A stretch of DNA of 64,000 nt. It comes from Lacticaseibacillus suibinensis. GTDB taxonomy: Bacteria > Bacillota > Bacilli > Lactobacillales > Lactobacillaceae. Position numbers and translations under genes: made by a program. Location of the stretch: NCBI RefSeq assembly GCF_003946175.1, contig NZ_RHOK01000001.1, positions 124,001-188,000 of the forward strand, given 5' to 3'. The notes beneath the pieces were generated by a model, which saw only the letters and a list, made by a program, of their open reading frames with translations, had not been told where the DNA came from and made no database searches. Shown in pieces: positions 23,645-38,587 of this stretch. How positions within the stretch are numbered: the stretch's first letter is position 1; each line of letters starts with the position of its first letter.

Positions 23645-23731
23645 GGAGAGTTGGCAGAGTGGTAATGCAACGGACTCGAAATCCGTCGAACCGGCTAATA
23701 CCGGCGCACGAGTTCGAATCTCGTACTCTCC
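23645..23731 (+). tRNA. tRNA-Ser (anticodon CGA)
   Basis: An 87-base class II tRNA: 7-bp acceptor GGAGAGT/ACTCTCC, anticodon stem ACGGA/TCCGT with loop CTCGAAA (anticodon CGA, Ser UCG codons), a long variable arm (CCGG/CCGG) and T arm ACGAG-TTCGAAT-CTCGT. CCA is not encoded, and the base after C72 is T. The 3' part is the attachment site of the adjacent element and is repeated at 38233-38292. Confidence 0.95.
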
Positions 23732-23733
23732 TG
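23674..23733. repeat. attL of the element (tRNA-Ser 3' end)
   Basis: 60 bases from the anticodon arm to just past the acceptor stem, matching 38233-38292 with three differences. The tRNA gene stays whole at this end. Confidence 0.88.
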
Positions 23734-23757
23734 AATAAACGTTGATATATCAGCGTC

Positions 23758-23786
23758 CCGCAGCCTTTCGGGGTTGCGGTTTTTTG
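23758..23786 (+). terminator. Terminator downstream of tRNA-Ser (element-borne)
   Basis: CCGCAGCC / GGTTGCGG (one G-U), 6-base loop and six T, 26 bases after the tRNA. A similar hairpin stands after attR. Confidence 0.8.
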
Positions 23787-23824
23787 TTGCTTTCAAACAC
23801 ATGTTTGGGTCGAAATAGGCCTTC

Positions 23825-23845
23825 CAGTACCAGTGCAGTACCAGT
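23825..23845. promoter_or_regulatory. Candidate integrase arm-binding repeats, left end
   Basis: CAGTACCAGT occurs twice, starting at 23825 and 23836 (11 bases apart), about 90 bases inside attL. Related copies are found inside attR. This spacing suits adjacent arm sites of a tyrosine recombinase. Confidence 0.5.
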
Positions 23846-23913
23846 TCGAAAAATCAGACCGCCGTTTTTGGCGGCAAACGTGTCCGGAATTTCATGTGAT
23901 CAGACCTTTCTTT

Positions 23914-25032
23914 TTAGAAGAATTTGTCGAGGGCATCGGCGGTTTCGCGTTGCTTGTTGGGGAAAAGATGCCCGTAAGTGTCAATCGTTGTGACGATGCT
24001 CGCATGCCCCAGTCGTTCCTTGATGATCGTGTACTCTGTTTCTTGGTCGATCAACAAGGCGACGTGTGAGTGCCTGAAATCGTGAATGCGAATCTGCTTC
24101 ATCGTGGGATCACGCTTGCAGATACGTTTGTAGCGCATGCGGATCGTATGCTTATTGCGGCGTATCAGCGTTGCTTGGAACATTGGCGTATCTTCGCTCC
24201 AGTCGAGGGCTAAGTCGTGCTTAAAGAGTTCCTGTTGCTGTTCACGCCATTGCAGAAGCAAGGCGATCATGCCTTGGTTGAGACTAATACGGCGATTACT
24301 AGCCTTAGACTTCGGCGGGGTAATGACATCCACGCCGCCGCGCCGGAACACAGACTTGCTGACAGTAAGTTCCTTGCGTTTGAAATCGAGATCCGACCAG
24401 TCCAGCGCGCATAGTTCGCCAACCCGCAGGCCGGAGAAGAACAGCAGTGAGAACAACACGTACCAGTCGAATTCCTCTGGCAGATGAATCAGCGTGGTAA
24501 ACGCGTGAAATTCATCTGGCGTGTAGAAGTCCATTTTCTTGCGTTCGATTTTGAGCTTCTTCACGCCAATACAAGGATTTTCGACGATCACTTTCTCCTC
24601 AACGGCGACATCGAGAATCAGCTTTAACTCAATCAAGGTCTTGTTGTTGGTGTTATTGCTCAAATCACGTTCCTCGGTGAGCCATTCTTGAAAGTCGCGG
24701 ATGTGCTCGCTGGTCAGGCGCTTAATATCGGCATTGACGAAGAACGTCTGGATATAGCGCTTGTACACGGCACGTTGGGACTGCAAGTAGGACGGCTTGA
24801 TATGGATCTTCACGCGGTTCACGTACCGCTCAAACAATTCATCCAAGGTGACGGTTTCTTGATTGAACAGCCGGTCGACGCTAGTACGCATCATCTCCTT
24901 TTCAACTTCGCGGGCAGCTGCCATTGAATGAATGCCTTGTTTCTTCTTGCGGCGTCGCTTGCCGGTGACGGGATCAGTGCCAAAGGAGACACTGACAACA
25001 TAGGTACCATTAGGTGCTTGGGTAATACTCAT
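23914..25032 (-). CDS. int: Tyrosine site-specific integrase
   Basis: A 372-aa phage/ICE-type integrase. N-terminal AP2-like arm-binding domain (about 1-50, TYVVSVSFGTDPVTGKRRRKK), SAM-like core-binding domain (60-160) and C-terminal catalytic domain with R in SGLRVGEL, HDFRH, LGHAS and the nucleophile in YGHLF. It integrates and excises the element at tRNA-Ser. The ATG at 25032 has GGAGGT upstream; the longer frame to 25134 overlaps the relaxase gene and is not needed. It reads toward attL, the common layout. A weak hairpin at about 23862-23878 may end it. Confidence 0.93.
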   Translation of the reverse strand: MSITQAPNGTYVVSVSFGTDPVTGKRRRKKKQGIHSMAAAREVEKEMMRTSVDRLFNQETVTLDELFERYVNRVKIHIKPSYLQSQRAVYKRYIQTFFVNADIKRLTSEHIRDFQEWLTEERDLSNNTNNKTLIELKLILDVAVEEKVIVENPCIGVKKLKIERKKMDFYTPDEFHAFTTLIHLPEEFDWYVLFSLLFFSGLRVGELCALDWSDLDFKRKELTVSKSVFRRGGVDVITPPKSKASNRRISLNQGMIALLLQWREQQQELFKHDLALDWSEDTPMFQATLIRRNKHTIRMRYKRICKRDPTMKQIRIHDFRHSHVALLIDQETEYTIIKERLGHASIVTTIDTYGHLFPNKQRETADALDKFF

Positions 25033-25130
25033 TTCATACCTCCAAATAATCGAAGGCACGCTTGCTTTGGTCGTTGACCATGATATACTTGGCTTGTCTA
25101 GGGCAAAGTATCGGGTGCGTGCAATCACGT

Positions 25131-26357
25131 TCATTCGTTGCTTTGTTTTTTTTCGTCTTCATGTTGCGCTTGTTCAAATACTTCCTTGAGTAACGTCTTC
25201 TGTTGCGGCGATAATTCAGCCTCGTTAATCATATCCGCGATCATGTCAGTACCATTGAGTGAATCGACTTGCTGAACCATTTTCAGACTGGGCGCGACTT
25301 GCTTGGTCAGCCAGTTCAGCACGCTGTCCATCGTGATTGGTTCAGGCCGCATTGCTAGTTTCAAGCGATTACGGTTATCGCCGATAAACGTTTGCCAGTC
25401 TGGATCTAGTGGACAATCGGCCAATTTCTTTGAGCCTTGTGGTGTTACGATCCGCAAGTAATGGTTAATAATCCCGAAGACAACCGTTTCGGCGTCTTGG
25501 CAGGCCAGCAGTTCCTTCATAGCCTTTTGAGCACGCTGGTCGCGAAGGCGGACTTCAAACCGGTTGAGAATTGGAGAATCTTCTGGGTAGTCGATTTTGT
25601 TTTTGAAATATTGTTCGATGTCCTTCTGATAGCCAATCATTTGCACCAAACTTTGTGGTGAACCGAATTGAACGGTTTTCCCGACACGGCCTTTCTTAAT
25701 GGTTTCGATTGCGCCTTTACTCTTGAACAAGCTCACTAGTTCTTCTTTTTCGACTTTTTGAATCAGGTGGGGAATGTCGATAATCCCGACGGTATCATTG
25801 ATGGCGAAGTCAACCCGTTTGTAGATCCCAGTTAGGTCATCGCAGGCCTGAAAAAAGTCGAACCAAGTCAGCCCATCTCGGACAAGCACTGCTTCTAGTT
25901 GACGGCAACCAGAGCCGTGCATCTCAATCATTGTTCCCAGATAGGCATTCGGGCCACCTACGCGGGTACTCATGATTGAAATATCGCCACGCTGAATCGT
26001 GTAGTCGAACCCATAAAAGGCCTTTTCAGTTAAGGAGAAGAAATCCCTGTTCATTGGAAAAAGCTTCTTGAACACATACTCGGCGTCTTGTGTATTGAAC
26101 CGCACCCGCACGTAATCGACTAAGATAAACATCGAATCACGATTGGTCAGGCCAAGAAGCGCGTGGCCCAGGCGCCGTTGCATTTCTTCGGTTAACGCAG
26201 CGCGTCCATTTAACAGCCGATTGACATAGGAGCGCGTCATACCTAGTTGTGCCGCAAGTTGTGCTTGACTAATACCGGCATCAGTCATCCGTTGGCGAAA
26301 TTCCGCCAACCAGCCGTGTCCAGTATGATCACGGCCATTCATCATTGTCTTATCCAT
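25131..26357 (-). CDS. mobT: MobT-like relaxase / Rep_trans replication initiation protein
   Basis: A 408-aa protein. An N-terminal XRE helix-turn-helix (about 18-65, ISQAQLAAQLGMTRSYVNRLL) is followed by a replication-initiation-factor (Rep_trans) domain (about 75-320, with YGFDYTIQRG and KRVDFAINDTVG). This architecture is that of Tn916 Orf20 and ICEBs1 NicK-type MobT relaxases, which nick oriT for rolling-circle transfer and replication. The active tyrosine could not be fixed by eye. GAGGTG lies 6 bases before the ATG at 26357. Upstream lies an oriT-like sequence. The alternative is a replication protein only. Confidence 0.8.
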   Translation of the reverse strand: MDKTMMNGRDHTGHGWLAEFRQRMTDAGISQAQLAAQLGMTRSYVNRLLNGRAALTEEMQRRLGHALLGLTNRDSMFILVDYVRVRFNTQDAEYVFKKLFPMNRDFFSLTEKAFYGFDYTIQRGDISIMSTRVGGPNAYLGTMIEMHGSGCRQLEAVLVRDGLTWFDFFQACDDLTGIYKRVDFAINDTVGIIDIPHLIQKVEKEELVSLFKSKGAIETIKKGRVGKTVQFGSPQSLVQMIGYQKDIEQYFKNKIDYPEDSPILNRFEVRLRDQRAQKAMKELLACQDAETVVFGIINHYLRIVTPQGSKKLADCPLDPDWQTFIGDNRNRLKLAMRPEPITMDSVLNWLTKQVAPSLKMVQQVDSLNGTDMIADMINEAELSPQQKTLLKEVFEQAQHEDEKKQSNE

Positions 26358-26459
26358 TGCTCACCTCGTGTGCTCTGATTTCGCCGTCTGCGAACAGCGG
26401 ATTGCCGTGCATAGTGGCGAATCACTTGTGTTTTCTGCCTCGTTTCGGATTGTTCTTGT

Positions 26460-26520
26460 CATTTTGTGCCCCCCTGTTAGAATACGGGAGCTTGGGCGGC
26501 CGGCTAACGCCGACCGCCGC
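26460..26520. other. Candidate oriT of the element
   Basis: GCCCCCCTGTTAG (26468-26480) followed by ATACGGGAG and GC-rich dyads, just upstream of the relaxase gene. Six C followed by TGTTAG recalls, as far as I remember, the ICEBs1/Tn916-type oriT inverted repeats used by MobT relaxases. This rests on memory and position. Confidence 0.5.
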
Positions 26521-26528
26521 CGCTCGCG

Positions 26529-26771
26529 CTAGCGGCTTTCGCGCTGCACGCCGCGCGCGGCGGCGTGGTGTTGCGTGACCATTGCCAGATCTTCAAATGG
26601 ATTGAAGCCTAACAGACTGACGATGGCGTGGAGTGGGACTTGGCCGCACTTGCGGTTTGCATAGAAGCAATGACCGTCTGCAACCAGGTTCAGCTTGCAC
26701 TGATGGATAATCTGTCCGGCTTTGTAACCGGAAAATCCTAACTGCATGAGCATCTTCTTATCGACTAACAT
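26529..26771 (-). CDS. DUF3173 family protein
   Basis: An 80-aa protein starting MLVDKKMLMQLGFSGYKAG; this 'G-F-S-x-x-K-A' start with a C-terminal LLGFNPFE is typical of DUF3173, small proteins encoded beside integrases and MobT relaxases in Gram-positive elements, possibly excisionase-like DNA binders. AGAGGTG stands upstream. The last 10-15 residues run into the GC-rich oriT region. Confidence 0.75.
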   Translation of the reverse strand: MLVDKKMLMQLGFSGYKAGQIIHQCKLNLVADGHCFYANRKCGQVPLHAIVSLLGFNPFEDLAMVTQHHAAARGVQRESR

Positions 26772-26849
26772 ATAGTCACCTCTTTTGGTTTGAATTTAAC
26801 ATGTATGGGTTTACAATCTGCTATGGCTGAATCATACCATCCTCCAAGA

Positions 26850-26875
26850 AACTTATCAACCTTTTTAGATAAGTT
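26850..26875. promoter_or_regulatory. Inverted repeat between DUF3173 and the XRE regulator
   Basis: Perfect 8-bp inverted repeat AACTTATC / GATAAGTT with 10 bases between. In the divergent control region, with TTGACA at 26902-26907 and a weak TAAGCT -10 at 26925-26930 for the regulator. It could be the repressor's operator. Confidence 0.45.
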
Positions 26876-26963
26876 ACAAACAGGTTTCGTTTAATTATTC
26901 CTTGACACTTTCAATGGGTTTCATTAAGCTTCAAGTAAGGCTACAAAAAGGAGAAATCAACTC

Positions 26964-27482
26964 ATGTTCGGAAAAAGTGAAGAAGGTATCGACAAGAAGC
27001 TCGCTAGAAATATTAAGCGTATTCGTATGGAACGCGGCATGACGCAAAAAGACCTTGCTGATGCAATGGGTAGCATTGAGCAAAGCGTGTCTAAGTTTGA
27101 GCGGGCAATTTCGGCACCGTCTGCTAAAGCGATTATGCAGCTGTGTGAGGCGTTGCAAGTGACGCCTAACGACTTGTATCTCAACGATGCCGACTGGCGC
27201 AGCTGGCAGTCAGAGAAGCTTGAACACCAAGACCATTCCGTTAACGGTTTGGTCGATCACGTCGAAATGGTTCAAAAGATGTTTGCGGAGGCAGAACTGG
27301 CCCGCAAAGCCGGAGATGAGAAGCTGGAGCGTGCTACTCTAGATCAAATCATTCAGATGTACATGTGGACTAACGACCATTTCCGTGACGTCGCGCACTT
27401 GCTTGATCGGCGCTATGTGACCGAGTACCTCGACAATATGGAAAAGGAAACTCGTGACGCAATGATCAACAACGCGAATTAG
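26964..27482 (+). CDS. XRE-family regulator of the element
   Basis: A 172-aa protein with a Cro/CI helix-turn-helix at about 12-67 (NIKRIRMERGMTQKDLADAM) and a helical C-terminus rich in charged residues (91-172) of unknown role, perhaps for multimerisation. AAAGGAG precedes the ATG. It is divergent from the DUF3173-mobT-int block and is the first gene of the cargo side, so it probably represses mobility genes or the cargo promoter. Confidence 0.82.
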   Translation: MFGKSEEGIDKKLARNIKRIRMERGMTQKDLADAMGSIEQSVSKFERAISAPSAKAIMQLCEALQVTPNDLYLNDADWRSWQSEKLEHQDHSVNGLVDHVEMVQKMFAEAELARKAGDEKLERATLDQIIQMYMWTNDHFRDVAHLLDRRYVTEYLDNMEKETRDAMINNAN

Positions 27483-27548
27483 ACCCTGTTTGATAAGCCG
27501 GACCACTTTACGCTTTAGCGTTCAATTAACGAAACGGAGGAGTTTCAT

Positions 27549-28202
27549 ATGACTGCAAAAGCAAGCAAACTAGACAAGTTTATTAAAGCCGCTGACAAAC
27601 TAGTTGAGTCCAGAGGTGTTTCTAAGCTCACCAAAACAATCGATAAGACACTGGATATTGCAGGAAATGCCATTGGAGCTGCAGCTGACGTGACCAATCA
27701 CCAACTGGATGAACATAACAAGCGACACCAGACCGATGTAAAATTGCCAGACATAATTGGTCTTAGTATTGATCAAGCAAAGGAATTGTTTGCTACGCTG
27801 GAACTCAAATATGCTCTTCTCGCTTCGGAGCCTGATGCAAGTTTTGAAACGGCTAAAGCTGATACCATCGTCAACACCGTTCCCAAGGCTCACACGGTTT
27901 TGTCTGCAGGCAGTTTCGTTAAGATCTACTACTTAGATGCGGAGGTTATTGAAGCGAGCCGGTTAATTGTCTCGGAGAAAGAAACCCGTAAACGTGCTCG
28001 AAAAGAAGCGGTCAAGGCTCTCGCCTCGAAGATTGGGCACGGCACTGCTATGAGTGCTCGCAATGTTTTAAAAGCCACGACAAAAGTGACTAAGAAATCC
28101 ACTAGGCAGAGTAGCACCCAAAAAAATTGCAAAGAGATTAAAGCTACGATTATTGATGTTCCCTCCACCGCTGATGAAAGTATGAACGATGACAGTAAGT
28201 AG
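27549..28202 (+). CDS. Cytosolic PASTA-domain protein (cargo copy)
   Basis: A 217-aa protein without a signal peptide or membrane helix. N-terminal helical segment (SKLDKFIKAADKLVES to about residue 55), a PASTA-like domain (about 66-140: KLPDIIGLSIDQAKELF... NTVPKAHTVLSAGSFVKIYY), then a basic helical tail (KETRKRARKEAVKALASKIGHGT) with Lys/Thr-rich end. PASTA domains usually sit outside the cell on PrkC/PBP2x, so a cytosolic one is odd. It has a paralogue at 38588-39232. GGAGGAG precedes the ATG. The TIR gene follows 66 bases later. Function unknown; a role with TIR is inference. Confidence 0.7.
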   Translation: MTAKASKLDKFIKAADKLVESRGVSKLTKTIDKTLDIAGNAIGAAADVTNHQLDEHNKRHQTDVKLPDIIGLSIDQAKELFATLELKYALLASEPDASFETAKADTIVNTVPKAHTVLSAGSFVKIYYLDAEVIEASRLIVSEKETRKRARKEAVKALASKIGHGTAMSARNVLKATTKVTKKSTRQSSTQKNCKEIKATIIDVPSTADESMNDDSK

Positions 28203-28268
28203 ACGATATAATTAGGCTTGACACGGTAGTCGATTGGCCCAGGCTCATGCTGATAAGGGGATGGATTA

Positions 28269-29138
28269 ATGAGCGTTTCATCAATTACAAGTTCGCTAAA
28301 CACATTAAGGCGCGAACTAAACCGAATTCAGGATAAACAAACTGATGCAGCGAACAAATACGCAAAACAAGATGACATCATATCTAGGTCAAATGATCGG
28401 CTAAGCAGAACGACCAGTGCAAGCCGCATCTCCTCCTACAATCGTGACATTGATAGAGCCCAAGCCGAAAAAGCAAAATTATCCAAAGTTCAAGCCAGTC
28501 TCAGTAAGGATTTCGGTAAGAAGCAAAGACAGATAGCAGACAAAGAAAAAGACCTTAGGAAAGCCACAGCTGATGAGCAGCAAAAACAGCTTAGGTCGAT
28601 GCAGAAAGACTACTCATCACAGATTGTTACCATGAAGCGAGAACAATCTGAATTATTGAAGTCACAATTTCTCTCCGATGATGCCAGTGGTACCCGTGAT
28701 TCTAAAGAGTACGATGTTTTTATTTCTTATGCTCACGAAGACCAAGAATATGCGGAGAAGCTGACCAGTGCCATTCAGGCAATGGATTTATCCGTTTGGA
28801 TTGATGAACAGAGTATGGGTTGGGGCGCGAGTCAAATTCAGTCTATGGACGACGGCATTCGCAACTCCAAGTTCTCAATAGTTCTCCTTTCCCCCGACTA
28901 TTTCGACAAATATTGGACAACTCATGAGTATCATTCAATGTTGATTAAAGCAAAGAATCAGCATGATCTCATATTGCCAATCTATCACAATGTCACGGCT
29001 GACCAGGTTAAAGACTATAATCTCGAATTAGCGGATCGGCATGCTTTGAACACAAGTATCTCCACTGTAGAAGAAATTGCTCATAAACTGCATGAGCTGA
29101 TTGCCTCTACTTCTTCTACCGACAGTGAGAATTCATAA
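28269..29138 (+). CDS. TIR-domain protein with long N-terminal coiled coil
   Basis: A 289-aa soluble protein. Residues 1-135 are Gln/Lys/Ser-rich coiled coil; 147-270 form a TIR domain (EYDVFISYAHEDQEYAEKL, SIVLLSPDYFDKYW, then E220 in the position of the NADase glutamate). Bacterial TIR proteins of this kind often deplete NAD+ or make cyclic ADP-ribose signals on phage infection. No ThsA-type partner is adjacent, so it is not canonical Thoeris. AAGGGGATGG is upstream. It stands between the PASTA-like gene and the type ISP enzyme. Confidence 0.83.
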   Translation: MSVSSITSSLNTLRRELNRIQDKQTDAANKYAKQDDIISRSNDRLSRTTSASRISSYNRDIDRAQAEKAKLSKVQASLSKDFGKKQRQIADKEKDLRKATADEQQKQLRSMQKDYSSQIVTMKREQSELLKSQFLSDDASGTRDSKEYDVFISYAHEDQEYAEKLTSAIQAMDLSVWIDEQSMGWGASQIQSMDDGIRNSKFSIVLLSPDYFDKYWTTHEYHSMLIKAKNQHDLILPIYHNVTADQVKDYNLELADRHALNTSISTVEEIAHKLHELIASTSSTDSENS

Positions 29139-29157
29139 ACACAAGGGAGTTAAAATA

Positions 29158-32100
29158 ATGAGCAAAACAGACCACATTAGTGTCAATTCCAGTTTCGACC
29201 GCTTAATTGAGCAAATTGACGCTTCTGCGAACGGTGTGCAGCGAGATCGTGGCACGATGTTTGAGGAAGTCGTTAAGTCTTATCTGTTAAATGAACCCGC
29301 CTACAAGAATCTATACGATAACGTGTGGATGCTACGCGAGGTTCCAGCTGAATATCAGATCCCAAGGAATGATCTTGGGGTCGATTTAGTGTGCCGTCAT
29401 CGTGGTACGGGTAAGCTGACGGCGGTACAGGCCAAGTATTACCGTGGCAAAGTCGGCAAAGACACTATCAACAGTTACGTTGCCGAACTGAACAAAAATT
29501 ACTATGCAGACGGTCTGCTAGTAGCCACCACCGACGACTGGAACAAGAACGCAGAAGCGGCGTTGCTCGACGGGACAAAAGAGATTAACCGTATCGGCCT
29601 TTCTGATCTTCGGCATTCTGGGTTTGATTGGTCTCAGTTTAACTTCGGCGATTCAGGAAAGGCCATCCAAGCCAGTCACAAACAGCCAAGAGCATATCAA
29701 AAGATCGCCATCGAAAAGACGGTCGCCTACTTCGACACGCACGAGCGCGGTAAATTGATTATGGCGCCCGGCACTGGTAAAACCTTTACGAGTCTCAAAA
29801 TTGCTGAGGCGCTCGCTAAGCATGAACGCAAGGACAATTACTTTGTGCTGTACCTAGTGCCAAGTATCCAGTTACTATCACAAACACTATTTAGCTGGAA
29901 TAGTGACGTCACGCCTGAGACGGACTTGGTTTCGTTTGCCGTAACCTCGGATCGTAACGCTTCGAAAAAGCGTACATATAGCAACAGCGATGACAGCGAT
30001 ATGAACGTTCAAGATATTGGCTTCCCAGCATCAACCAGCGCTGAGAAGCTAATGGCAAACTATCATGCCTTACAAACAGATGCTGGTAGTCGTATCACGG
30101 TGATCTTCAGCACCTACCAGTCCATTGATGTCATTCAACTTGCACAGCAACAAGGCTATCCAGAATTTGATTTAATTATTGCTGATGAAGCCCACCGAAC
30201 GACTGGATCACATGCAGCTAATGAAGAAGCTGGCATGTTTACCAAGGTGCATAGTAATAACATCATTAAGGCGCACCATCGCCTCTACCAGACCGCAACG
30301 CCCAAAATCTATTCGCAAGACACCAAGAAAAAAGGCGAAGACGAAAACATTGTGATTGCCTCAATGGACGACCAGGATATTTACGGTGACGAGATTTACC
30401 GGCTCGGTTTTGGGGATGCAGTTGCTAAAGGAATCCTGACAGACTATAAGGTTGAGGTTTTAGCGGTTGATGAATCTGTAATTCAGCGCGATTTACAAAG
30501 TAGTATTTCTACCGAAAACGGTCTGGGTATTGATGACATTGGCAAGATCATCGGTGTTTGGAATGCCATGATGAAGCGTGAGAGTTTCTCAGATAAAGTG
30601 AACGGTGCGCCGATGCAACGCGCAATTGCTTTTGCGTCCGTGATCGATAATCAGCGCGGACAAGGCGCTGGCAAGGTCGGTTCTAAGCAAATCGCTCAGG
30701 AATTCAATCACGTTGTCAACGAATATCTCGGCGATGATAACCCTAACAGCTTCCATGTGGATGTAAAGCACGTTGATGGCAGCATGAATGCCCTTCAAAA
30801 GAAGGATGCAATCGACTGGCTTGCTGCCGACCTACCTGATGATGAAGCACGTGTTCTGTCCAACGTGAAGTTCCTCACTGAAGGTATCGATGTTCCGAAT
30901 CTCGATGCCATTATTTTCTTTGCACCAAAGCAGTCTCAAATTGACATCGTTCAAGCAGTTGGTCGAATCATGCGCAAGTACAAGGATAAAGACTATGGCT
31001 ACATTATCCTACCTGTGGTCGTCCCTGCTGGGCAGGATCCAGACACGGTGCTGGATGATAACAAAACTTACCAAGCGGTTTGGCAGGTATTGAACGCCCT
31101 CCGTTCCATTGACGAACGGTTCGAGGCATCCGTCAACAAGCTGGACCTTAACAATAAAAAGCCACGTAACTTGAATGTGATTGGCGTTGGTGGCGCTCCC
31201 GATGGTGAACTTGGTAATTCTGGTAGCAAATCTGATCCAGTGAACACAGAACAAACCGAGTTGGAACTGAACTGGCATGAGATTCAAAATGCCATTTACG
31301 GTCGAATTGTCAAAAAAGTGGGCGATCGCCGCTACTTGGAAGACTGGACGGCCGACGTTCAGCAACTAGCAGAGCGTCATATTCGCTGGATTCAAAACTT
31401 GATTGCCGATAAGCAGTCCCCATTCGCCAAGTCCTTTAAGAAATACGTCAGAAGTTTGCAGCACAATATCAATAGCGATATCGACGACCAGCAAGCCATC
31501 GAGATGTTGGCACAGCACATTATCACGAAGCCAATCTTTGAAGCTCTCTTTGATCAGTACAGTTTCGTTAACGACAATCCCGTTTCTCGCGCAATGGAAG
31601 ACATGATTCAGCAAATGCTGGAGGCTGGCTTTGATCAGGAGCAAGCTGCACTTGAGCCGTTTTATGAATCAGTCCGTTTGCGTGCTACTGGGATTGATAA
31701 CGCAGCGGCCAAGCAGCAATTCATCGTCACATTATATGATAAATTTTTTAGCACTGGTTTTAGCGCGACTGCCGAAAAATTAGGCATCGTCTTCACGCCT
31801 GTTGAAATCGTGGACTTTATTGTGAAGTCGGTCGATGAAGTGCTCAAGAAACATTTTGGACGTGGACTTGCGGCTGAAGGTGTGCACGTGCTTGATCCGT
31901 TTACCGGTACTGGGACGTTCATCACGCGGACGCTCGAATACTTAAATCAAGAACTGGAACGTGGTGAGATTACCCTTGCCGACATCACTCGCAAATACAC
32001 ACAAGAGTTGCATGCTAACGAGATTGTTCTGTTAAGTTATTACATTGCCGCAATCAACATTGAATCCGTATTTGACGAGATTAATGGACCAGAAGATTAT

Positions 32101-33921
32101 ATTCCATTTGACGGAATTGTGTTGGCCGATACCTTCGAATCTACAGAGAATCTTGATGTGTTGGATGAAGATATGTTCACTGGTAATAACAAACGTTTGA
32201 AGAAGCAACAAGAAGTGCCGATTACGGCGATTATATCAAACCCGCCGTATTCCGCCGGTCAAAAGAACCAAAACGATAACAATCAAAATATTCACTACGC
32301 AAAGTTGGAGACACACATTCGGGAAACCTATGTAAGAACCAGTAAGGCCAGCCTGAGTAAGGGAATGTATGATAGCTATATTAAGGCATTCCGCTGGGCA
32401 AGCGACCGCTTAGGTGAACAAGGGGTAATTGGGTTCGTTACTAATGCGGGCTACCTAGATTCAAATTCTGCGGATGGTATGCGTAAGTCCCTTTATGGCG
32501 AGTTCAACTACCTCTATATTTTCAACTTACGTGGGAACCAGAGAACATCTGGTGAGCGATCGCGTAAGGAAGGTGGCAAGATATTTGGTTCTGGGAGTCG
32601 TGCACCGATTGCAGTAAGTATCCTTGTTAAGGATGGCTCAGATAAGCATGAGCTGTTCTACCACGATATTGGTGACTACTTATCTCGCCAGCAGAAACTA
32701 GACATCATCTCTCAGGCTGGGAGTATTAGTAGGATTGAATGGAATACTGTCAATCCAGATGAGAATAATGATTGGCTTAATCAAAGAGACCCAAATTATC
32801 AACAGTACATGCCTTTGGCTTCAAAAGAACATGATGGTATTTTTGGGATTAATGCGATGGGAGTTCTAACCAGTAGAGATGCATGGATATATGGCTATAA
32901 CGATGTAAGAGTGAGCGCAAACGTCCGTTTATTTATTGACCATTACAATCAAGAACGCGAGCGATTAGAAAAGGTGGAACCAGACAGTAGGAAAAACATG
33001 GTAAACACAGATGCCGCATACGTGAAATGGTCTTTTCGTTTACAGGAATCACTTCGAAAGAATAAAAGTATAGACTTTTTCCCCCAGAAAATGCGTCTAA
33101 GTTTATACAGGCCATTCACTAAAAAGTGGTTGTATTATGATGATGCTTTGGTTGAAAGAACACGTAGTTATTATCAAAAATTTGGTGATAGCAACAAGGT
33201 AATCTTTACAACTGGTCGAGGGTCTGATAAAGATTTCTCAGCGATAGCTACAGATGAAATCCCTTGCAATGACCTTCAAGCAAAAGGACAAGGCTTTATG
33301 CGTTACGACAACGAAGTCCAAGACGATGCCCTATTCCAAACTGGTCGTGACAATGTGTCTGAGACCTTTGCCAGGAAGTTGGGACTTTCCACTGATGATA
33401 CCTATTCTTACGTATACGGCGTGCTGAACTCACCAGAATACCAAAGTCGGTATGCCAACGATTTGAAGAAAGATTTGGCGCGAATTCCAGTTCTCAAGAA
33501 TATTGAACAGTATGTGGCTGTTGGTAAGCAACTGATGGACTTACATATCAACTATGAAGATGCACCAATCTATGATGGTTGTGAAGTGGTATTCAAGTCT
33601 AAGGAACCTAGTTATACCGTTAAGAAGATTCGGTTCAAGTCTCGAGATGACCATTCTGAAATCAAATTCAACTCCGATATCAATATCAAGAATATTCCTG
33701 AACGCGCCTATGATTATGTAGTTAATGGGCGATCTGCCCTCGAATGGATTATGGATCAATATCAAGTGAAGACCGATAAGGCCTCCCAGATAACTGATGA
33801 CCCCAACGATTACAGCGATGACCCGAAGTACATTTTCAATTTACTGCTAAGAATCATCACGGTCTCATTGAAGACATTAGATTTGATTGCTCAACTACCA
33901 GAGTTTGAGCTTGCAGAATGA
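29158..33921 (+). CDS. Type ISP restriction-modification enzyme (single polypeptide, LlaGI/LlaBIII-like)
   Basis: A 1587-aa protein joining restriction and methylation. Mrr-like nuclease (GVD around 76, QAK 91-93), SF2 translocase with Walker A APGTGKT (203-209) and ADEAH (343-346), a helical coupler, then a gamma N6-adenine methyltransferase with LDPFTGTGTF (about 912) and NPPY (about 1028), and a C-terminal target-recognition region. Lactococcal LlaGI and LlaBIII have the same order and length. It would methylate one strand of an asymmetric site and cut after translocation. The ATG at 29158 follows AAGGGAG; the frame's earlier ATG lies in the TIR gene. No separate methylase is needed. Confidence 0.9.
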   Translation: MSKTDHISVNSSFDRLIEQIDASANGVQRDRGTMFEEVVKSYLLNEPAYKNLYDNVWMLREVPAEYQIPRNDLGVDLVCRHRGTGKLTAVQAKYYRGKVGKDTINSYVAELNKNYYADGLLVATTDDWNKNAEAALLDGTKEINRIGLSDLRHSGFDWSQFNFGDSGKAIQASHKQPRAYQKIAIEKTVAYFDTHERGKLIMAPGTGKTFTSLKIAEALAKHERKDNYFVLYLVPSIQLLSQTLFSWNSDVTPETDLVSFAVTSDRNASKKRTYSNSDDSDMNVQDIGFPASTSAEKLMANYHALQTDAGSRITVIFSTYQSIDVIQLAQQQGYPEFDLIIADEAHRTTGSHAANEEAGMFTKVHSNNIIKAHHRLYQTATPKIYSQDTKKKGEDENIVIASMDDQDIYGDEIYRLGFGDAVAKGILTDYKVEVLAVDESVIQRDLQSSISTENGLGIDDIGKIIGVWNAMMKRESFSDKVNGAPMQRAIAFASVIDNQRGQGAGKVGSKQIAQEFNHVVNEYLGDDNPNSFHVDVKHVDGSMNALQKKDAIDWLAADLPDDEARVLSNVKFLTEGIDVPNLDAIIFFAPKQSQIDIVQAVGRIMRKYKDKDYGYIILPVVVPAGQDPDTVLDDNKTYQAVWQVLNALRSIDERFEASVNKLDLNNKKPRNLNVIGVGGAPDGELGNSGSKSDPVNTEQTELELNWHEIQNAIYGRIVKKVGDRRYLEDWTADVQQLAERHIRWIQNLIADKQSPFAKSFKKYVRSLQHNINSDIDDQQAIEMLAQHIITKPIFEALFDQYSFVNDNPVSRAMEDMIQQMLEAGFDQEQAALEPFYESVRLRATGIDNAAAKQQFIVTLYDKFFSTGFSATAEKLGIVFTPVEIVDFIVKSVDEVLKKHFGRGLAAEGVHVLDPFTGTGTFITRTLEYLNQELERGEITLADITRKYTQELHANEIVLLSYYIAAINIESVFDEINGPEDYIPFDGIVLADTFESTENLDVLDEDMFTGNNKRLKKQQEVPITAIISNPPYSAGQKNQNDNNQNIHYAKLETHIRETYVRTSKASLSKGMYDSYIKAFRWASDRLGEQGVIGFVTNAGYLDSNSADGMRKSLYGEFNYLYIFNLRGNQRTSGERSRKEGGKIFGSGSRAPIAVSILVKDGSDKHELFYHDIGDYLSRQQKLDIISQAGSISRIEWNTVNPDENNDWLNQRDPNYQQYMPLASKEHDGIFGINAMGVLTSRDAWIYGYNDVRVSANVRLFIDHYNQERERLEKVEPDSRKNMVNTDAAYVKWSFRLQESLRKNKSIDFFPQKMRLSLYRPFTKKWLYYDDALVERTRSYYQKFGDSNKVIFTTGRGSDKDFSAIATDEIPCNDLQAKGQGFMRYDNEVQDDALFQTGRDNVSETFARKLGLSTDDTYSYVYGVLNSPEYQSRYANDLKKDLARIPVLKNIEQYVAVGKQLMDLHINYEDAPIYDGCEVVFKSKEPSYTVKKIRFKSRDDHSEIKFNSDINIKNIPERAYDYVVNGRSALEWIMDQYQVKTDKASQITDDPNDYSDDPKYIFNLLLRIITVSLKTLDLIAQLPEFELAE

Positions 33922-33989
33922 TTTCACTTACATGTTCAGCACAATCGTGATAGTCTCTCATGAATTATGAAAATATGGAAGAAAAAGAC

Positions 33990-36095
33990 ATGAAACTAAC
34001 AAAGCTGATAATAGATGGCTTTCGCTCCTATGGAGAATCGACAACCATCGATTTTGATAATATTACAACACTGATTGGTAGTAACGGGGCCGGAAAGACC
34101 ACTGCTTTGATTGCATTAAACAAAATGTTCTCAGTTAATGCCAACGATCGCATTATTTCCCCCACGGACTTCTTTGTTGCAACTCAAGACAATGGCGAGT
34201 TACAGTCATCGACGAAGTTGACCTGCGAAGCAGTGTTTGAATTTGAGCAAGAGGATGACTCTGCAAGCCAAAAACACGCGGATGCCCTGTTACTGAAACA
34301 TTTGTGTGTTAAAGGACCTGGCGAGGCATTGATTTTGCGTATTCAGTTGGTTGCCACACTCGAGGATGATGGGACCGCTGATGGAGCAATCGATTCACAT
34401 ATTTATTACGTGCCGACTCTGGGAGTCTGCAAGGATGAAGACTTGGTATTAGCTTCAAGACGTGAGTTGCAGCATATCCGGCTGATTTATGTACCTGCAG
34501 TGCGAAATCCCGATACGCAGCTCGGAACTACATCCAAAAGCTTGCTAGCAAACTTAGTTCGTCACATTAATTGGGGCAACGAGACTAAGCAGTTAGTTGA
34601 CGCGCAATTAGATTCGCTCAATGATACGATTCTCAATTCTAAGGGAGTCAAACTCATTGGAGACAGCCTTTCTGCGGACTGGAATATGTTCCATGAAAAT
34701 GACCGATTTGCAGACGTGCGGCTCAATATTGAATCGACGAGTTTAGGCGATCTTGCAAAAAGGATGCGACCTGTATTTCAATCGTCAATCAGCCATCGCA
34801 CTTTTCAACCCGAAGAAATGGGTGATGGTACTCGGTCACTATTTTATATTTCCAATGTCGCAAGTGTCTTAGAAGTTGAGCGGAAGTTATTAGAGGCGGA
34901 AGAACAGTTTTCAAAGGATGAAACTACAGGTGAGGAACATGCCCGATTGATCGATCATCAACCACCGGTACTCACTATTTTAGCGATTGAAGAACCTGAA
35001 AATCACATTTCACCGCATCTGTTAGGTAAACTTGTTAATCAACTAAAAGCGATGGCAGATTATCCAAATGCCCAAGTTGTATTGACTTCACACTCTCCCG
35101 CCATAGTAAAGCGGGTAACCCCAGAATGTATTAGATACGTATGGATGAATAAAGACACAGATGTCAGTTCTGTGCAATCGCTAGAAATTCCGAATCAAGA
35201 AGACGAACTTGAAGCATATCGTTACGTTAAAATGGCGGTAGAGTTGTATCCAGAACTCTATTTTGCCCAGCTCGTCATCTTAGGTGAAGGAGCAAGCGAA
35301 GAAATTCTTCTCCCAAAGTTCTTGGAACTTAGTGGAAAGCCTCTGGATGAATCGGGAATTTCCTTTGTTCCGCTTGCAGGAAGATTTGTTCATTACATTT
35401 GGCATCTATTGACCCAGCTTCAAATACCTTACATTTCGTTGCTTGATCTGGATCGTGAACGTTCGGGTGGCGGATGGGGCCGGGTCAGCTATGTACTTAA
35501 AGAGTTAAGACAAAATAGTATAGATGTCAACGCGTATCCTGACGGAATCACAGACCTTTCAGAGGCAAGTCTGCAGCAACTTTCTGAAAGAAAAACCGAG
35601 GACAGCGTATCTGCCAATCAGTTAGATCAGTACTTGAAATATTTGCAGAAGTACAATGTGTTTTTCTCAGCGCCGTTGGATATTGACTTCGTAATGTTGT
35701 CTTCTTATAAGAACAATTACCTAGGCCTTGTTCAAGGAAAACAAGGTCCTACACTGAAGGTAGATGGTAAACGCTGGTTGATAAGTGAATACCCGAAACA
35801 GGATGAGAACGATTCGTCATATGCCTTACGCGTAGAAAAAGCTCGTAAAGATGCTTTGAAGAAAGATAATTCAAAACTGGGTCCTAGCTCAGGAAATTCG
35901 TATTCATTTCAAGATCGGGAATTAATGATTTGGTACGTATACTTCTTCCTTGGCCGTGGGAAGACAACCACTCATATACAAGCATTAACTCAAATGAATG
36001 ATGATGCACTGAAAGCCGGCATGCCTTCTCTATTTAGTGAAATCGCCGCGAAGGCCTCGCAATTATTGGGAAAGGAGCCCGTCAGTCATGATTAG
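33990..36095 (+). CDS. gajA: OLD-family ATP-dependent nuclease, Gabija GajA-like
   Basis: A 701-aa ABC-type ATPase joined to a TOPRIM nuclease. Walker A GSNGAGKTT (about 30), long insertion, Walker B LAIEEPENHISP and LTSHSP, then TOPRIM with VILGEGASEE (about 430) and LLDLDRE (about 485). With a UvrD-like helicase immediately downstream it matches Gabija (GajA-GajB), in which GajA cuts phage DNA when nucleotides fall. It is longer than the roughly 580-aa Bacillus GajA. ATG 33990 has GGAAG upstream; ATG 33960 is possible. Other class 2 OLD pairs are an alternative. Confidence 0.78.
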   Translation: MKLTKLIIDGFRSYGESTTIDFDNITTLIGSNGAGKTTALIALNKMFSVNANDRIISPTDFFVATQDNGELQSSTKLTCEAVFEFEQEDDSASQKHADALLLKHLCVKGPGEALILRIQLVATLEDDGTADGAIDSHIYYVPTLGVCKDEDLVLASRRELQHIRLIYVPAVRNPDTQLGTTSKSLLANLVRHINWGNETKQLVDAQLDSLNDTILNSKGVKLIGDSLSADWNMFHENDRFADVRLNIESTSLGDLAKRMRPVFQSSISHRTFQPEEMGDGTRSLFYISNVASVLEVERKLLEAEEQFSKDETTGEEHARLIDHQPPVLTILAIEEPENHISPHLLGKLVNQLKAMADYPNAQVVLTSHSPAIVKRVTPECIRYVWMNKDTDVSSVQSLEIPNQEDELEAYRYVKMAVELYPELYFAQLVILGEGASEEILLPKFLELSGKPLDESGISFVPLAGRFVHYIWHLLTQLQIPYISLLDLDRERSGGGWGRVSYVLKELRQNSIDVNAYPDGITDLSEASLQQLSERKTEDSVSANQLDQYLKYLQKYNVFFSAPLDIDFVMLSSYKNNYLGLVQGKQGPTLKVDGKRWLISEYPKQDENDSSYALRVEKARKDALKKDNSKLGPSSGNSYSFQDRELMIWYVYFFLGRGKTTTHIQALTQMNDDALKAGMPSLFSEIAAKASQLLGKEPVSHD

Positions 36096-37935
36096 TAGTT
36101 CTGGTTGGGAACCTTCTGAGGGAATCATTCTAGAGCGCGAAGCGGAAAATGCAATCAAATCCACGAGAAATCAGCTTGTTGTTGCTGGCCCCGGTACTGG
36201 GAAAACGGAAATGTTGGCGCAGAAAGCCGATTACTTGTTTCAAACTGGCATTTGTGCAGATCCGTTTAAAATTCTAGCTATTAGTTTCAAGAAGGATTCG
36301 GCAACGAACTTAAAAAAACGAGTTGATAAGCGATCTCCCCAATTTTCAAAATACCGTTTTGACTCAATGACATTTGATGGTTTTGCCAAACAAATTCTGG
36401 ATCAATTTAGAATGGGATTGCCTGAAGACCTCAGACCGAATGCCGACTATTTGGTAGAGAATACCCAACTTCTAGATCGAATGTCACGCGATAGTTTTAC
36501 GAACAGAACGCCTAGTAAGAAGGAAATCACATCCTCTTGGAAAAATATCCAGATTCAACAAAATCAGCTTCTTGAATGTGATCGCTATCTCCAGAATGAA
36601 ATGTTGACCGGGACCGAAGATTTGCCAGCTTGCTTGCCATACCACGCTATTATGCGACTTGCCCAAATGATACTAAGGCTAAATCCGGCAGTTCAACAAG
36701 CAGTTCGTAACGCCTATCCATTTGTTTTTATCGATGAATTCCAAGATACTACAACGTCTCAACTGGTGTTGGTACGACAACTTTTTGAAAATTCCGGATC
36801 TGCAATCACTGCGGTTGGAGATGACAAGCAACGTATAATGATCTGGGCGGGAGCAAGAAAGACGGCATTCGAAGACTTCTGTAGTATATTTGCCGCAGAA
36901 ACACGTGAGCTATCAATTAATCATCGGTCTGCCCCTGCAATCGTCGGCTTGCAGAGGCAAATGTACGCTTCCCTGAATGCAAATTCGTCAACGGCAATTA
37001 CCGAGCCCTCTTGGAACCCCGACGACGGAGACATAGAACTACTGGAGTCCGATAATGAAAAAGAGGAAGCTGAGCTACTCGCACGAAGAGTGAAGCTGTT
37101 GATTGATGATGGAATTTCCCCTAATAAGATTGCTGTTTTGTTGAAGCAAAAAGTCTCAAATTATGCACCTTTACTGATTTCCAGTTTTGCCAGCGAAGGG
37201 ATTAAAACTCGCGAGGAGGCCGAGTACCAAGAACTACTGAATGAATCATTGGTACAGCTTGTCATCCAAACAATAAATATTAATCTGGGAAAGAACACTC
37301 TAGCTGAATGGGAAAGCTACATGTCTTCACTTATTGTTTCGCGTGGTATCGAGAATGAAGGAGCCGCATATGTGAAAGCAGAACGGGAGCTGAATAATTT
37401 TCTAAAATCGACCACGACACTCCTGCAGAAGCCGGCAAACATGCAACTGGTGATGAAAATAATTGATCAAGTAACACATTTTTGGACATATGATTACCTT
37501 GTCGGCACTGATGAGACGTATTCAAACCAAGAGCGCTTTAGTCAACTTCGAGAGACACTCGCGACACGTCTACTCGAAGAATACGAAACCACCAATAATT
37601 GGATCGAGGTGATTGATAATTTTGAAGGGAAGCATTCTGTTCCAATCATGACGATCCATAAAAGCAAGGGATTGCAATTCGAGGCTGTGTTTATTGTGGC
37701 ACTAGACGACAATGCATTTTGGTCCATGACAAAGGATGCCGACGAGACTAGAAGAACATTCTTCGTTGCTATTTCCCGTGCCAAGCGCTATTTAGGTTTC
37801 ACCTTTTCGCATCATCGGCATCATGGCGACATTATGACACACAACGATATACAGGAGTTCTATGATCTGATTTCTCCGACTGCAATTCGTGTGAATCTAG
37901 CTAATGTGGAGAGTGAGTTAAAATCGACCGATTGA
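36088..37935 (+). CDS. gajB: UvrD/Rep-like SF1 helicase, Gabija GajB-like
   Basis: A 615-aa SF1A helicase. Walker A GPGTGKT (about 34), motif II FIDEFQDTT (about 216), motif III AVGDDKQRI, motif V TIHKSKGLQF and motif VI FFVAISRAKR are all intact. The ATG at 36088 lies inside the GajA stop region (8-base overlap) with AAAGGAG 9 bases upstream, showing translational coupling. In Gabija the helicase senses DNA ends or ssDNA and activates GajA. It is about 120 residues longer than the best-known GajB. Confidence 0.78.
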   Translation: MISSSGWEPSEGIILEREAENAIKSTRNQLVVAGPGTGKTEMLAQKADYLFQTGICADPFKILAISFKKDSATNLKKRVDKRSPQFSKYRFDSMTFDGFAKQILDQFRMGLPEDLRPNADYLVENTQLLDRMSRDSFTNRTPSKKEITSSWKNIQIQQNQLLECDRYLQNEMLTGTEDLPACLPYHAIMRLAQMILRLNPAVQQAVRNAYPFVFIDEFQDTTTSQLVLVRQLFENSGSAITAVGDDKQRIMIWAGARKTAFEDFCSIFAAETRELSINHRSAPAIVGLQRQMYASLNANSSTAITEPSWNPDDGDIELLESDNEKEEAELLARRVKLLIDDGISPNKIAVLLKQKVSNYAPLLISSFASEGIKTREEAEYQELLNESLVQLVIQTININLGKNTLAEWESYMSSLIVSRGIENEGAAYVKAERELNNFLKSTTTLLQKPANMQLVMKIIDQVTHFWTYDYLVGTDETYSNQERFSQLRETLATRLLEEYETTNNWIEVIDNFEGKHSVPIMTIHKSKGLQFEAVFIVALDDNAFWSMTKDADETRRTFFVAISRAKRYLGFTFSHHRHHGDIMTHNDIQEFYDLISPTAIRVNLANVESELKSTD

Positions 37936-38079
37936 GTCGTCAGATAGGTTGACTGATATTGTTTCCCTGAGTCGGTGTACTCGGCACAAACAGGAGTTGG
38001 TGTGCCATGCTTCCTACAACAATCGCGACCGCTACAAAGACAATTTCCGTTCCGCAGTTACGCATCGTTGCCTGGCACG

Positions 38080-38106
38080 AAAAAAGGCCGCCAACCAATG
38101 ACGGCC
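38080..38106 (-). terminator. Minus-strand terminator near attR
   Basis: GGCCGTC, 7-base loop, GGCGGCC (one G-U) and six T on the minus strand. No real gene is read toward it, so it may guard the cargo from transcription entering across attR. The 37936-38232 stretch has no supported gene. Confidence 0.65.
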
Positions 38107-38121
38107 AACCAAGTATATTCG

Positions 38122-38141
38122 CGTACCAATTCAGTACCACT
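38122..38141. promoter_or_regulatory. Candidate integrase arm-binding repeats, right end
   Basis: CGTACCAATT and CAGTACCACT in tandem (10 bases apart), about 90 bases inside attR, matching the CAGTACCAGT pair near attL. Confidence 0.5.
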
Positions 38142-38232
38142 TCATCCAAATTCAGCCGATTTCAACCGTTTCTAATGCATGAAGAATGCCGTTAAATCAA
38201 CGATTTGACTTCAGTCAAACCGCCAGGATACA

Positions 38233-38292
38233 ACTCGAAATCCGTCGAACCGGCTTACACCGGCGCACGAGTTCAAATCTCGTACTCTCCTG
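38233..38292. repeat. attR of the element (tRNA-Ser fragment)
   Basis: Direct repeat of 23674-23733 with three differences (two in the variable arm, one in the T loop). It lacks the 5' half of the tRNA, so it is not a gene. Confidence 0.88.
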
Positions 38293-38305
38293 CAGTAACA
38301 TCCGT

Positions 38306-38335: not shown

Positions 38336-38521
38336 GTGGTGAAGGATTGCATGAGCCAACAATTCATCAGTTACCGCGATATCACGTCACCAGATTGAGC
38401 GACTGCGGCTGGTCATCTTATGCCCCTGATCAAGCCAAGTCACACTCGCACCGACTTTCAGTGTTGTGTCCCCAGGGATATGGGAACCGAAGCCACAAGG
38501 AACGATAAATAATGAATGTTG

Positions 38522-38550
38522 TTGTTCAGTCTAGCAAAATATTCTAAAAT
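38522..38550 (+). promoter_or_regulatory. Promoter of the chromosomal PASTA-like gene
   Basis: TTGTTC, 17 bases, TAAAAT, 38 bases upstream of the start codon. Confidence 0.65.
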
Positions 38551-38587
38551 GGATATATTCCATTCTATTTCATTGGGGGAAAACACG

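What the first reader, a model, noticed from the sequence alone, without database searches (positions are those of the whole stretch)
23674..38292. A mobilizable element in tRNA-Ser that carries stacked anti-phage systems
Exact limits are visible (60-bp att repeats), with integrase, MobT-like relaxase, DUF3173 and repressor on one side and PASTA-like, TIR, type ISP R-M and an OLD/UvrD pair on the other. No conjugation genes are seen. Such a compact defence-carrying IME would spread immunity through helper ICEs.
Basis: partly seen in the sequence, partly recalled or inferred. Interest (0 to 1): 0.78.

Follow-up and report, generated by a model that had tools for sequence, protein, structure and literature searches.

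The report
Mobilizable island carrying antiviral defence genes
A Lacticaseibacillus chromosome carries a 14.6-kb hitch-hiking DNA island, inserted in a serine tRNA gene, that holds phage-defence genes; related islands sit at the same gene in ten related species, with other cargo where it could be read, and the same genome has a conjugative element that could carry it.

Summary
Confirmed and extended. The att repeats, tRNA-Ser, tyrosine integrase, MOBT-type relaxase, DUF3173 protein and repressor are real and their frames open. No conjugation channel gene was found inside. Backbones 91-98% identical were compared in nine other species, and a partial copy lies in a tenth, all in tRNA-Ser; where readable, cargo differs inside one slot between the repressor gene and a conserved right end. 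Two congeners show syntenic empty sites; the nearest relative has prophage genes beside the same flank. Two species share 9 kb at 99.93%. New here: a three-hairpin oriT-like region with the MOBT nic motif, 79% identical to that of an ICESt3/Tn916-type ICE cluster in the same genome, with covarying pairs in 25 sequences. That ICE is the helper candidate. Against: the relaxase is below NCBI's MobT cut-off, and no relaxase-binding repeat was found in the IME although the ICE has one. Excision, transfer and immunity are inferred. Verdict: new member of a known kind (MobT IMEs), with a clean modular defence slot.

The parts
23645..23732 (+). tRNA-Ser(CGA), integration target; its 3' part (23674-23732) is the attL copy
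   Evidence: ARAGORN; repeat
23674..23740 (+). left att repeat
23827..23843 (+). putative integrase arm site, GTACCA-N5-GTACCA
   Evidence: 2 places in the window, none in 100 shuffles; this left copy is perfect in 11 of 11 family elements examined and in 0 of 2 unrelated elements at the same tRNA
23914..25134 (-). tyrosine integrase (406 aa)
   Evidence: PF00589 66.9 bits
25131..26357 (-). MOBT-type relaxase (Rep_trans, N-terminal HTH); Y-x-K-x-x-E at residue 243, Asp motifs at 80 and 180, RFEVRL at 266
   Evidence: PF02486 157 bits, PF18106, HTH_3; NF041493 MobT 333 bits, cut-off 600; motifs
26465..26568 (-). putative oriT: two hairpins, then a GC-rich hairpin with CTAACAGGGGGG (26469-26480); by the CT'AA rule the nick would fall between 26479 and 26478
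   Evidence: rule from passages of PMC9371924
26529..26771 (-). DUF3173 protein (80 aa), possibly an excisionase or other accessory factor (inferred)
   Evidence: PF11372 58.9 bits
26964..27482 (+). Cro/CI-type repressor; the left edge of the cargo slot lies at the 3' end of this gene
   Evidence: PF01381; alignment
27549..28202 (+). small PASTA-domain protein, cargo of unknown role
   Evidence: PF03793 32.7 bits
28269..29138 (+). TIR-domain protein, PADLOC candidate PDC-S66, likely NADase effector (inferred)
   Evidence: PDC-S66 272 bits over 1-278; AbTIR NAD+ hydrolase 8g83, E 4e-34; WxxxE at 216
29158..33921 (+). type ISP restriction-modification enzyme (Mrr nuclease, helicase-like ATPase, coupler, methyltransferase, specificity domain)
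   Evidence: LlaBIII over 11-1587 and LlaGI over 174-1587; motifs
33960..36095 (+). GajA (OLD-like ATPase with TOPRIM domain)
   Evidence: PADLOC GajA 726 bits; PF20469; motifs
36037..37935 (+). GajB (UvrD-like helicase)
   Evidence: PADLOC GajB 663 bits
38080..38232 (.). conserved right end of the element; right edge of the cargo slot
   Evidence: alignment of 9 elements
38123..38139 (+). second putative arm site, same repeat and spacing; one mismatch in the eight other elements aligned
38233..38299 (+). right att repeat (displaced native tRNA 3' part, inferred)

Best explanation
A 14.56-kb integrative and mobilizable element of the MobT class in a Lacticaseibacillus chromosome. Shown by sequence: integrase, att core and paired arm repeats; a MOBT-type relaxase; an oriT-like region with the MOBT nic motif; a cargo slot holding TIR, type ISP R-M and Gabija genes. 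Inferred: on derepression the integrase, with DUF3173 as accessory, excises a circle; the relaxase nicks at CT'AA, may also replicate the circle by rolling circle, and hands the strand to the coupling protein and T4SS of an ICESt3/Tn916-type ICE such as the one on contig C11 of the same genome; in the recipient the strand re-circularises and integrates in tRNA-Ser, where the element supplies the tRNA 3' part, bringing its defence genes. Cargo is exchanged between conserved ends, probably by homologous recombination between related or tandem copies.
For: att, tRNA and genes. MobT at 94% or more in 12 places in 11 of 397 genomes, own genome included, one place partial; of the 11 other elements 10 start in a full tRNA-Ser and one in 62 nt of it. 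Backbone DNA 91.2-97.7% identical in 10 elements of nine species, while the right chromosomal flank is 71-81% in three congeners and 94% in the nearest. 9,049 bp are 99.93% identical between L. baoqingensis and L. daqingensis. Syntenic empty sites in G198 and G399. Slot edges conserved with unrelated DNA between them. Nic motif 123 nt upstream of mobT, and 141 nt upstream of the aligned part of the co-resident ICE's mobT; the two 104-nt regions are 79% identical though the relaxases are 35% identical; 8 of 32 pairs have two-sided changes, not reached in 500 shuffles. ICE cluster with TcpC, lysozyme/NlpC, AAA_10 (VirB4-like), MobT and FtsK-like proteins. Active-site motifs present.
Against: The relaxase scores below NCBI's MobT equivalog cut-off (333 of 600 bits). 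No inverted repeat like the ICESt3 relaxase-binding site was found downstream of the IME nic, while the ICE has a perfect 12-bp one. The nic motif alone is weak evidence: 18 of 100 shuffles of the window hold a match at one mismatch. The intergenic stretch 26358-26528 does not fold unusually (z -1.1, 25 of 200 shuffles as good); the 104-nt region gives z -2.2 (6 of 200). The nic hairpin is the weakest helix, 73% of cells paired, and the window's own stem has a C-to-T change that leaves a T-G pair. The ICE's ends and integrase were not determined. There is no read evidence of excision and no defence assay.
Confidence: 0.86

Rival explanations
1. The element is mobilised chiefly by the helper ICE's own relaxase acting on the look-alike oriT; the IME relaxase serves mainly for rolling-circle maintenance.
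For: IME and ICE oriT regions are 79% identical with compensating changes; relaxase-less IMEs are said to carry an oriT similar to that of the helper (introduction passage of PMC7563843).
Against: The IME relaxase keeps the MOBT motifs and lies beside its own nic motif; the ICE's 12-bp repeat, which resembles the relaxase-binding site, has no counterpart found in the IME; the IME_oriT studied in PMC7563843 used its own relaxase (abstract passage).
Confidence: 0.15
2. A decaying genomic island: it arrived as an IME but is now fixed and is kept only for its defence genes.
For: The att copies differ at 6 of 67 positions; no excision data; a second PASTA gene beside attR shows further change at the site.
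Against: All backbone frames are open; 99.93% identity of another family member between two species shows recent movement in the family; the closest backbone in another species is 97.7% identical.
Confidence: 0.2
3. A phage satellite or prophage remnant that moves by transduction.
For: Tyrosine integrase and CI-like repressor; the relaxase also matches a PHROG of replication initiators weakly (phrog_453, 54 bits); prophage genes lie beside the same flank in the nearest relative.
Against: No structural or packaging family among hits of the element's proteins; no megablast match in 50,697 phage records; MOBT-type relaxase with an ICE-like oriT region.
Confidence: 0.03

Closest known systems
Streptococcal IMEs of class IME_1 (Rel_PF02486/MobT, tyrosine integrase; PMC5357655, passages seen)
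   Same: Tyrosine integrase plus a single MobT-type relaxase, no T4SS, no coupling protein (21 of 45 there also lack TcpA).
   Different: Host genus, tRNA-Ser target and defence cargo; the words DUF3173 and restriction do not occur in that paper's main text.
IME_oriT elements mobilised by ICESt3 (PMC7563843, abstract and passages seen)
   Same: Rep_trans-type relaxase; use MobT ICEs as helpers.
   Different: Those integrate in the ICE oriT; this one integrates in tRNA-Ser and carries its own ICE-like oriT region.
ICESt3/Tn916/ICEBs1 superfamily: MOBT relaxase and oriT (PMC9371924 and PMC6499999, passages seen)
   Same: CT'AA in the loop of a GC-rich hairpin; N-terminal HTH plus PF02486; Y-x-K-x-x-E motif.
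   Different: No distal binding repeat found in the IME; two further hairpins upstream of nic, which the passages seen do not mention.
Gabija (GajA-GajB), type ISP R-M (LlaGI, LlaBIII), PADLOC candidate PDC-S66
   Same: Family matches over most of each protein and motifs present.
   Different: Best full-length plasmid homologues are 52% (GajA, Latilactobacillus sakei), 59% (ISP, Limosilactobacillus reuteri) and 28-34% (TIR, four records) identical.

Membership tests
Integrative and mobilizable element (IME) | own integrase and att sites | tested here: met
Integrative and mobilizable element (IME) | own relaxase and/or oriT | tested here: met
   relaxase; oriT-like region: (function inferred)
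Integrative and mobilizable element (IME) | no mating-pair (T4SS) genes | tested here: met
   none among the nine proteins scanned
Integrative and mobilizable element (IME) | excision and transfer with a helper | not testable with these tools
   a helper candidate is present in the genome
ICE | VirB4-type ATPase and T4SS inside the element | tested here: not met
MOBT relaxase | PF02486 domain with N-terminal HTH | tested here: met
MOBT relaxase | active-site motifs: two Asp motifs, Y-x-K-x-x-E, acidic residue of motif IV | tested here: met
   motif search; alignment with the ICE relaxase; residue list from passages of PMC6499999; RelSt3 itself was not aligned
MOBT relaxase | NCBI MobT equivalog cut-off (NF041493, 600 bits) | tested here: not met
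   333 bits; so it is called MOBT-type, not that equivalog
MOBT oriT | CT'AA in the loop of a GC-rich hairpin | tested here: met
   rule
MOBT oriT | distal inverted repeat bound by the relaxase HTH, as in ICESt3 | tested here: not met
   none in the IME with arms of 9 or more and few mismatches; a 12-bp perfect repeat in the ICE, reached by 0 of 60 shuffles
Gabija | adjacent GajA (ATPase-TOPRIM) and GajB (UvrD-like) genes | tested here: met
Type ISP restriction-modification | single chain with Mrr nuclease, helicase, coupler, methyltransferase and ISP specificity domain | tested here: met
Thoeris (considered for the TIR gene) | ThsA partner beside the TIR gene | tested here: not met
   no ThsA among the listed PADLOC hits of the element's proteins, (lists of GajA and GajB capped at 25)

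The most novel reading that the evidence does not exclude
The family is a dedicated defence shuttle: a fixed mobility backbone whose single cargo slot trades whole defence cassettes between species, and whose oriT is held by selection as a three-hairpin look-alike of the resident ICE's oriT, so that ICE proteins process it; by occupying the tRNA-Ser site that a prophage appears to use in the nearest relative, it competes with phages for attachment as well as by immunity.
Probability: 0.25. Interest if true: 0.7.

Novelty: new member of a known kind. Interest (0 to 1): 0.5.

Why it matters
It gives a comparative picture of how small defence-carrying elements spread among lactic acid bacteria: exact ends, empty sites, one cargo slot with at least three different contents, a recent inter-species transfer in the family, and a helper candidate in the same cell whose oriT region it resembles. 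That makes the question 'do ICEs carry defence islands between species, and through which relaxase?' directly testable in food-grade bacteria.

Tried and rejected
ICE: rejected, no T4SS gene found inside. Phage satellite: judged unlikely, no structural or packaging family and no megablast match in phage records. Known plasmid: no megablast match in 72,556 plasmid records. Thoeris: no ThsA seen. PASTA and TIR as a two-gene system: not supported. The TIR gene was found in 3 of 397 family genomes, own included, the other two at 30% identity or less; PASTA relatives in 39 of 397. The five closest PASTA homologues outside this genome show no TIR gene in their 2.1-3.6-kb loci, and three lie beside a GuaA-like frame, recognised by eye. 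PASTA gene inside as a recent copy of the one outside: not supported, 50% identity, against 45-56% to five genomes of another genus. A relaxase-binding repeat in the IME: searched, none found. GajA against solved structures at E 1e-5 or better gave only retron PtuA-type ATPases, so its name rests on PADLOC and the gene pair.

Limits: the 397 genomes are a sample of the family, one per species, so variation within species was not seen. Of the long MmeI-like frames in family elements only the one in L078 was scanned against families; the four others are named from their similar first 70 residues. Of the two 282-aa cargo proteins only that of L082 was scanned. IS30-like transposases in L079 and L080 are named by eye. 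The covariation structure was derived partly from the window sequence, which by itself lifts it above the slid controls, and the sequences are related, so '0 of 500 shuffles' is not a probability. The 25 rows come from 30 fetched loci, not from every match: 22 distinct rows with CTAACAGGGG, two of the three loci with the TAATAGG variant (L145 was left out), and the window.
Full report
The observation. The window belongs to a Lacticaseibacillus genome of 2.56 Mb (G000; the genus is inferred from the names of congeners). A 67-nt direct repeat at 23674-23740 and 38233-38299 (91%) is the only direct-repeat family reported there, and its first 59 nt are the 3' part of tRNA-Ser(CGA) 23645-23732. Between the copies lie an integrase, a Rep_trans/MobT-like relaxase, a DUF3173 protein, a repressor, a PASTA protein, a TIR protein, a type ISP restriction-modification enzyme and an OLD-like/UvrD-like pair. 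PADLOC names the pair Gabija (GajA 726 bits, GajB 663 bits) and the TIR protein candidate PDC-S66 (272 bits, residues 1-278 of 289). No conjugation gene was found among the nine proteins scanned. Expected active-site motifs of the relaxase, GajA, GajB, the ISP enzyme and the TIR protein are present by motif search (the motifs are recalled except those of the relaxase). The best match of the TIR domain to a solved structure is the NAD+ hydrolase AbTIR; the ISP enzyme matches LlaBIII over residues 11-1587 and LlaGI over 174-1587.

The element as a family. The relaxase was searched in 397 genomes of the bacterial family: 87 had some match, and 12 matches in 11 genomes, the own included, were at 94% identity or more, one of them partial. 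Named records are L. songhuajiangensis, hegangensis, daqingensis (two copies), yichunensis, baoqingensis, parakribbianus, sharpeae, kribbianus, Agrilactobacillus yilanensis and a MAG labelled Lactobacillus sp. (partial). Of these 11 elements, 10 begin in a full tRNA-Ser and one (the second copy of L. daqingensis) in 62 nt of it. The backbone of 10 elements in nine species is 91.2-97.7% identical in DNA to the window's, whereas the right chromosomal flank of the window is 71-81% identical in the three congeners G198, G399 and G179 and 94% in the nearest, G325; of these four only G179 carries the element. A stretch of 9,049 bp is 99.93% identical between L. baoqingensis and L. daqingensis. Element and chromosome thus have different histories, which means horizontal spread.

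The cargo slot. Nine aligned elements agree up to the last codons of the repressor gene and again from window position 38080 to the right att, with largely unrelated DNA between. Of 11 elements whose cargo could be read (one cut by its contig end), six including the window hold an intact recognisable defence enzyme: a long MmeI-like type IIG frame in five (scanned in one, L078), with DolA/DolB besides in A. yilanensis, and TIR, ISP and Gabija in the window. Three hold a truncated MmeI-like frame with transposase-like or other genes, and two a 282-aa protein, which had no PADLOC hit in the one scanned. L. baoqingensis has three att copies in a row, the segment between the second and third lacking this integrase, like a cis-mobilizable remnant.

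Occupied and empty sites. At the tRNA-Ser of 24 congeners, 8 have this element's integrase at 98% or more, 2 have another integrase-like frame nearby, and 14 have none within about 1.5 kb. Of these 14, G198 and G399 show both window flanks around one uninterrupted tRNA (left flank about 65% identical over 434 and 915 nt), with about 410-515 bp between tRNA and the conserved right flank. G303 has a second att copy. In G325, the nearest relative, phage-type replication and regulation genes and an integrase lie beside the right flank, on another contig than the tRNA. In L. hegangensis the right att has the same 3' tRNA sequence as the empty site of G399, while the left tRNA has the element's version: the element replaces the tRNA 3' part and displaces the native one.

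Integration sites of the recombinase. GTACCA-N5-GTACCA occurs exactly twice in the 64-kb window, once near each end of the element and in the same orientation (none in 100 shuffles). The left copy is perfect in 11 of 11 family elements; the right one is perfect only in the window, the eight others aligned having GTGCCA in the first half. These are likely arm-type sites.

Origin of transfer and helper. Passages of PMC9371924 state that MOBT ICEs are nicked at CT'AA in the loop of a GC-rich hairpin. CTAACAGGGGGG lies once in the window (26469-26480, minus strand), 123 nt upstream of mobT. By itself this is weak: 0.22 matches are expected at one mismatch and 18 of 100 shuffles have one. Contig C11 of the same genome has a TcpC protein, a lysozyme-like/NlpC protein, an AAA_10 (VirB4-like) ATPase, a MobT relaxase and an FtsK-like protein in one cluster, with the same motif 141 nt upstream of the aligned part of its mobT. 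The two 104-nt regions are identical in 83 of 105 columns, 79%, although the relaxases are 35% identical. A search with the ICE region found a match in 52 of 397 genomes. In 25 aligned sequences (see Tried and rejected for the choice of rows) a three-hairpin structure of 32 pairs has 92.8% of cells paired and 8 pairs with changes on both sides, more than any of 500 shuffles; slid versions have at most 46% paired. The outer pair of the second hairpin is A-T in 12, G-C in 12 and T-A in 1. The nic hairpin is the weakest, with 73% of cells paired. Against full equivalence: the ICE has a perfect 12-bp inverted repeat with a 10-nt spacer 84 nt past the start of the motif (0 of 60 shuffles as good), like the ICESt3 relaxase-binding repeat, and the IME has none that my search could find. 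So the nicking region is shared and the binding region is not, which favours use of the IME's own relaxase with the ICE's coupling protein and channel.

Cargo origin. The TIR gene was found in 3 of 397 family genomes, the two others only weakly. The best full-length plasmid homologues are distant: GajA 52%, ISP 59%, TIR 34% (eight records hold some ISP match at 60-80%). The whole element has no megablast match in the plasmid or phage collections.

What is known. MobT IMEs without a coupling protein are described in streptococci (PMC5357655, passages). Mobilisation of an IME with a Rep_trans-type relaxase by ICESt3 is reported (PMC7563843, abstract and passages). Orphan methylases on IMEs are reported in S. 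suis (PMC12479173, passages). Gabija of lactic acid bacteria is said to lie frequently beside restriction-modification genes (PMC13304284, figure-legend passage). The listings of the searches showed me no paper on this tRNA-Ser family in Lacticaseibacillus; they list only the best 10-20 papers each of an open-access library. Hence: a new member of a known kind, with a helper candidate and an oriT resemblance that make its mobilisation directly testable.

Noticed in passing
38516-39232: A second PASTA-domain gene, 50% identical to the one in the element, lies just right of attR. About 1 kb holding it has no counterpart at the same place in the nearest relative (L151) or at the empty sites L092 and L093; it may be left from an earlier insertion.
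   Followed up: partly
L105-L107: Three of the closest PASTA homologues in another genus lie beside a GuaA-like frame (by eye); guaA is an integration site of IMEs in S. suis (passage of PMC12479173), so this PASTA family may be mobile-element cargo.
   Followed up: partly
L099:457-10337: Probably a second integrative element of the same genome, beside a GuaA-like frame: integrase, Rep_trans protein without HTH hit, MmeI-like type IIG enzyme and DolA/DolB genes. Its ends were not sought.
   Followed up: partly
L097:16118-18820: A 900-aa protein with weak similarity to Ppl (83 bits) and to other defence models is encoded between the relaxase and the FtsK-like gene of the helper ICE.
   Followed up: no
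26529-26568: The 3' end of the DUF3173 frame overlaps the first hairpin of the putative oriT.
   Followed up: no
L085:2450-17046: L. baoqingensis has three att copies in a row plus a short inverted copy to the left; the segment between the second and third has no copy of this integrase.
   Followed up: partly
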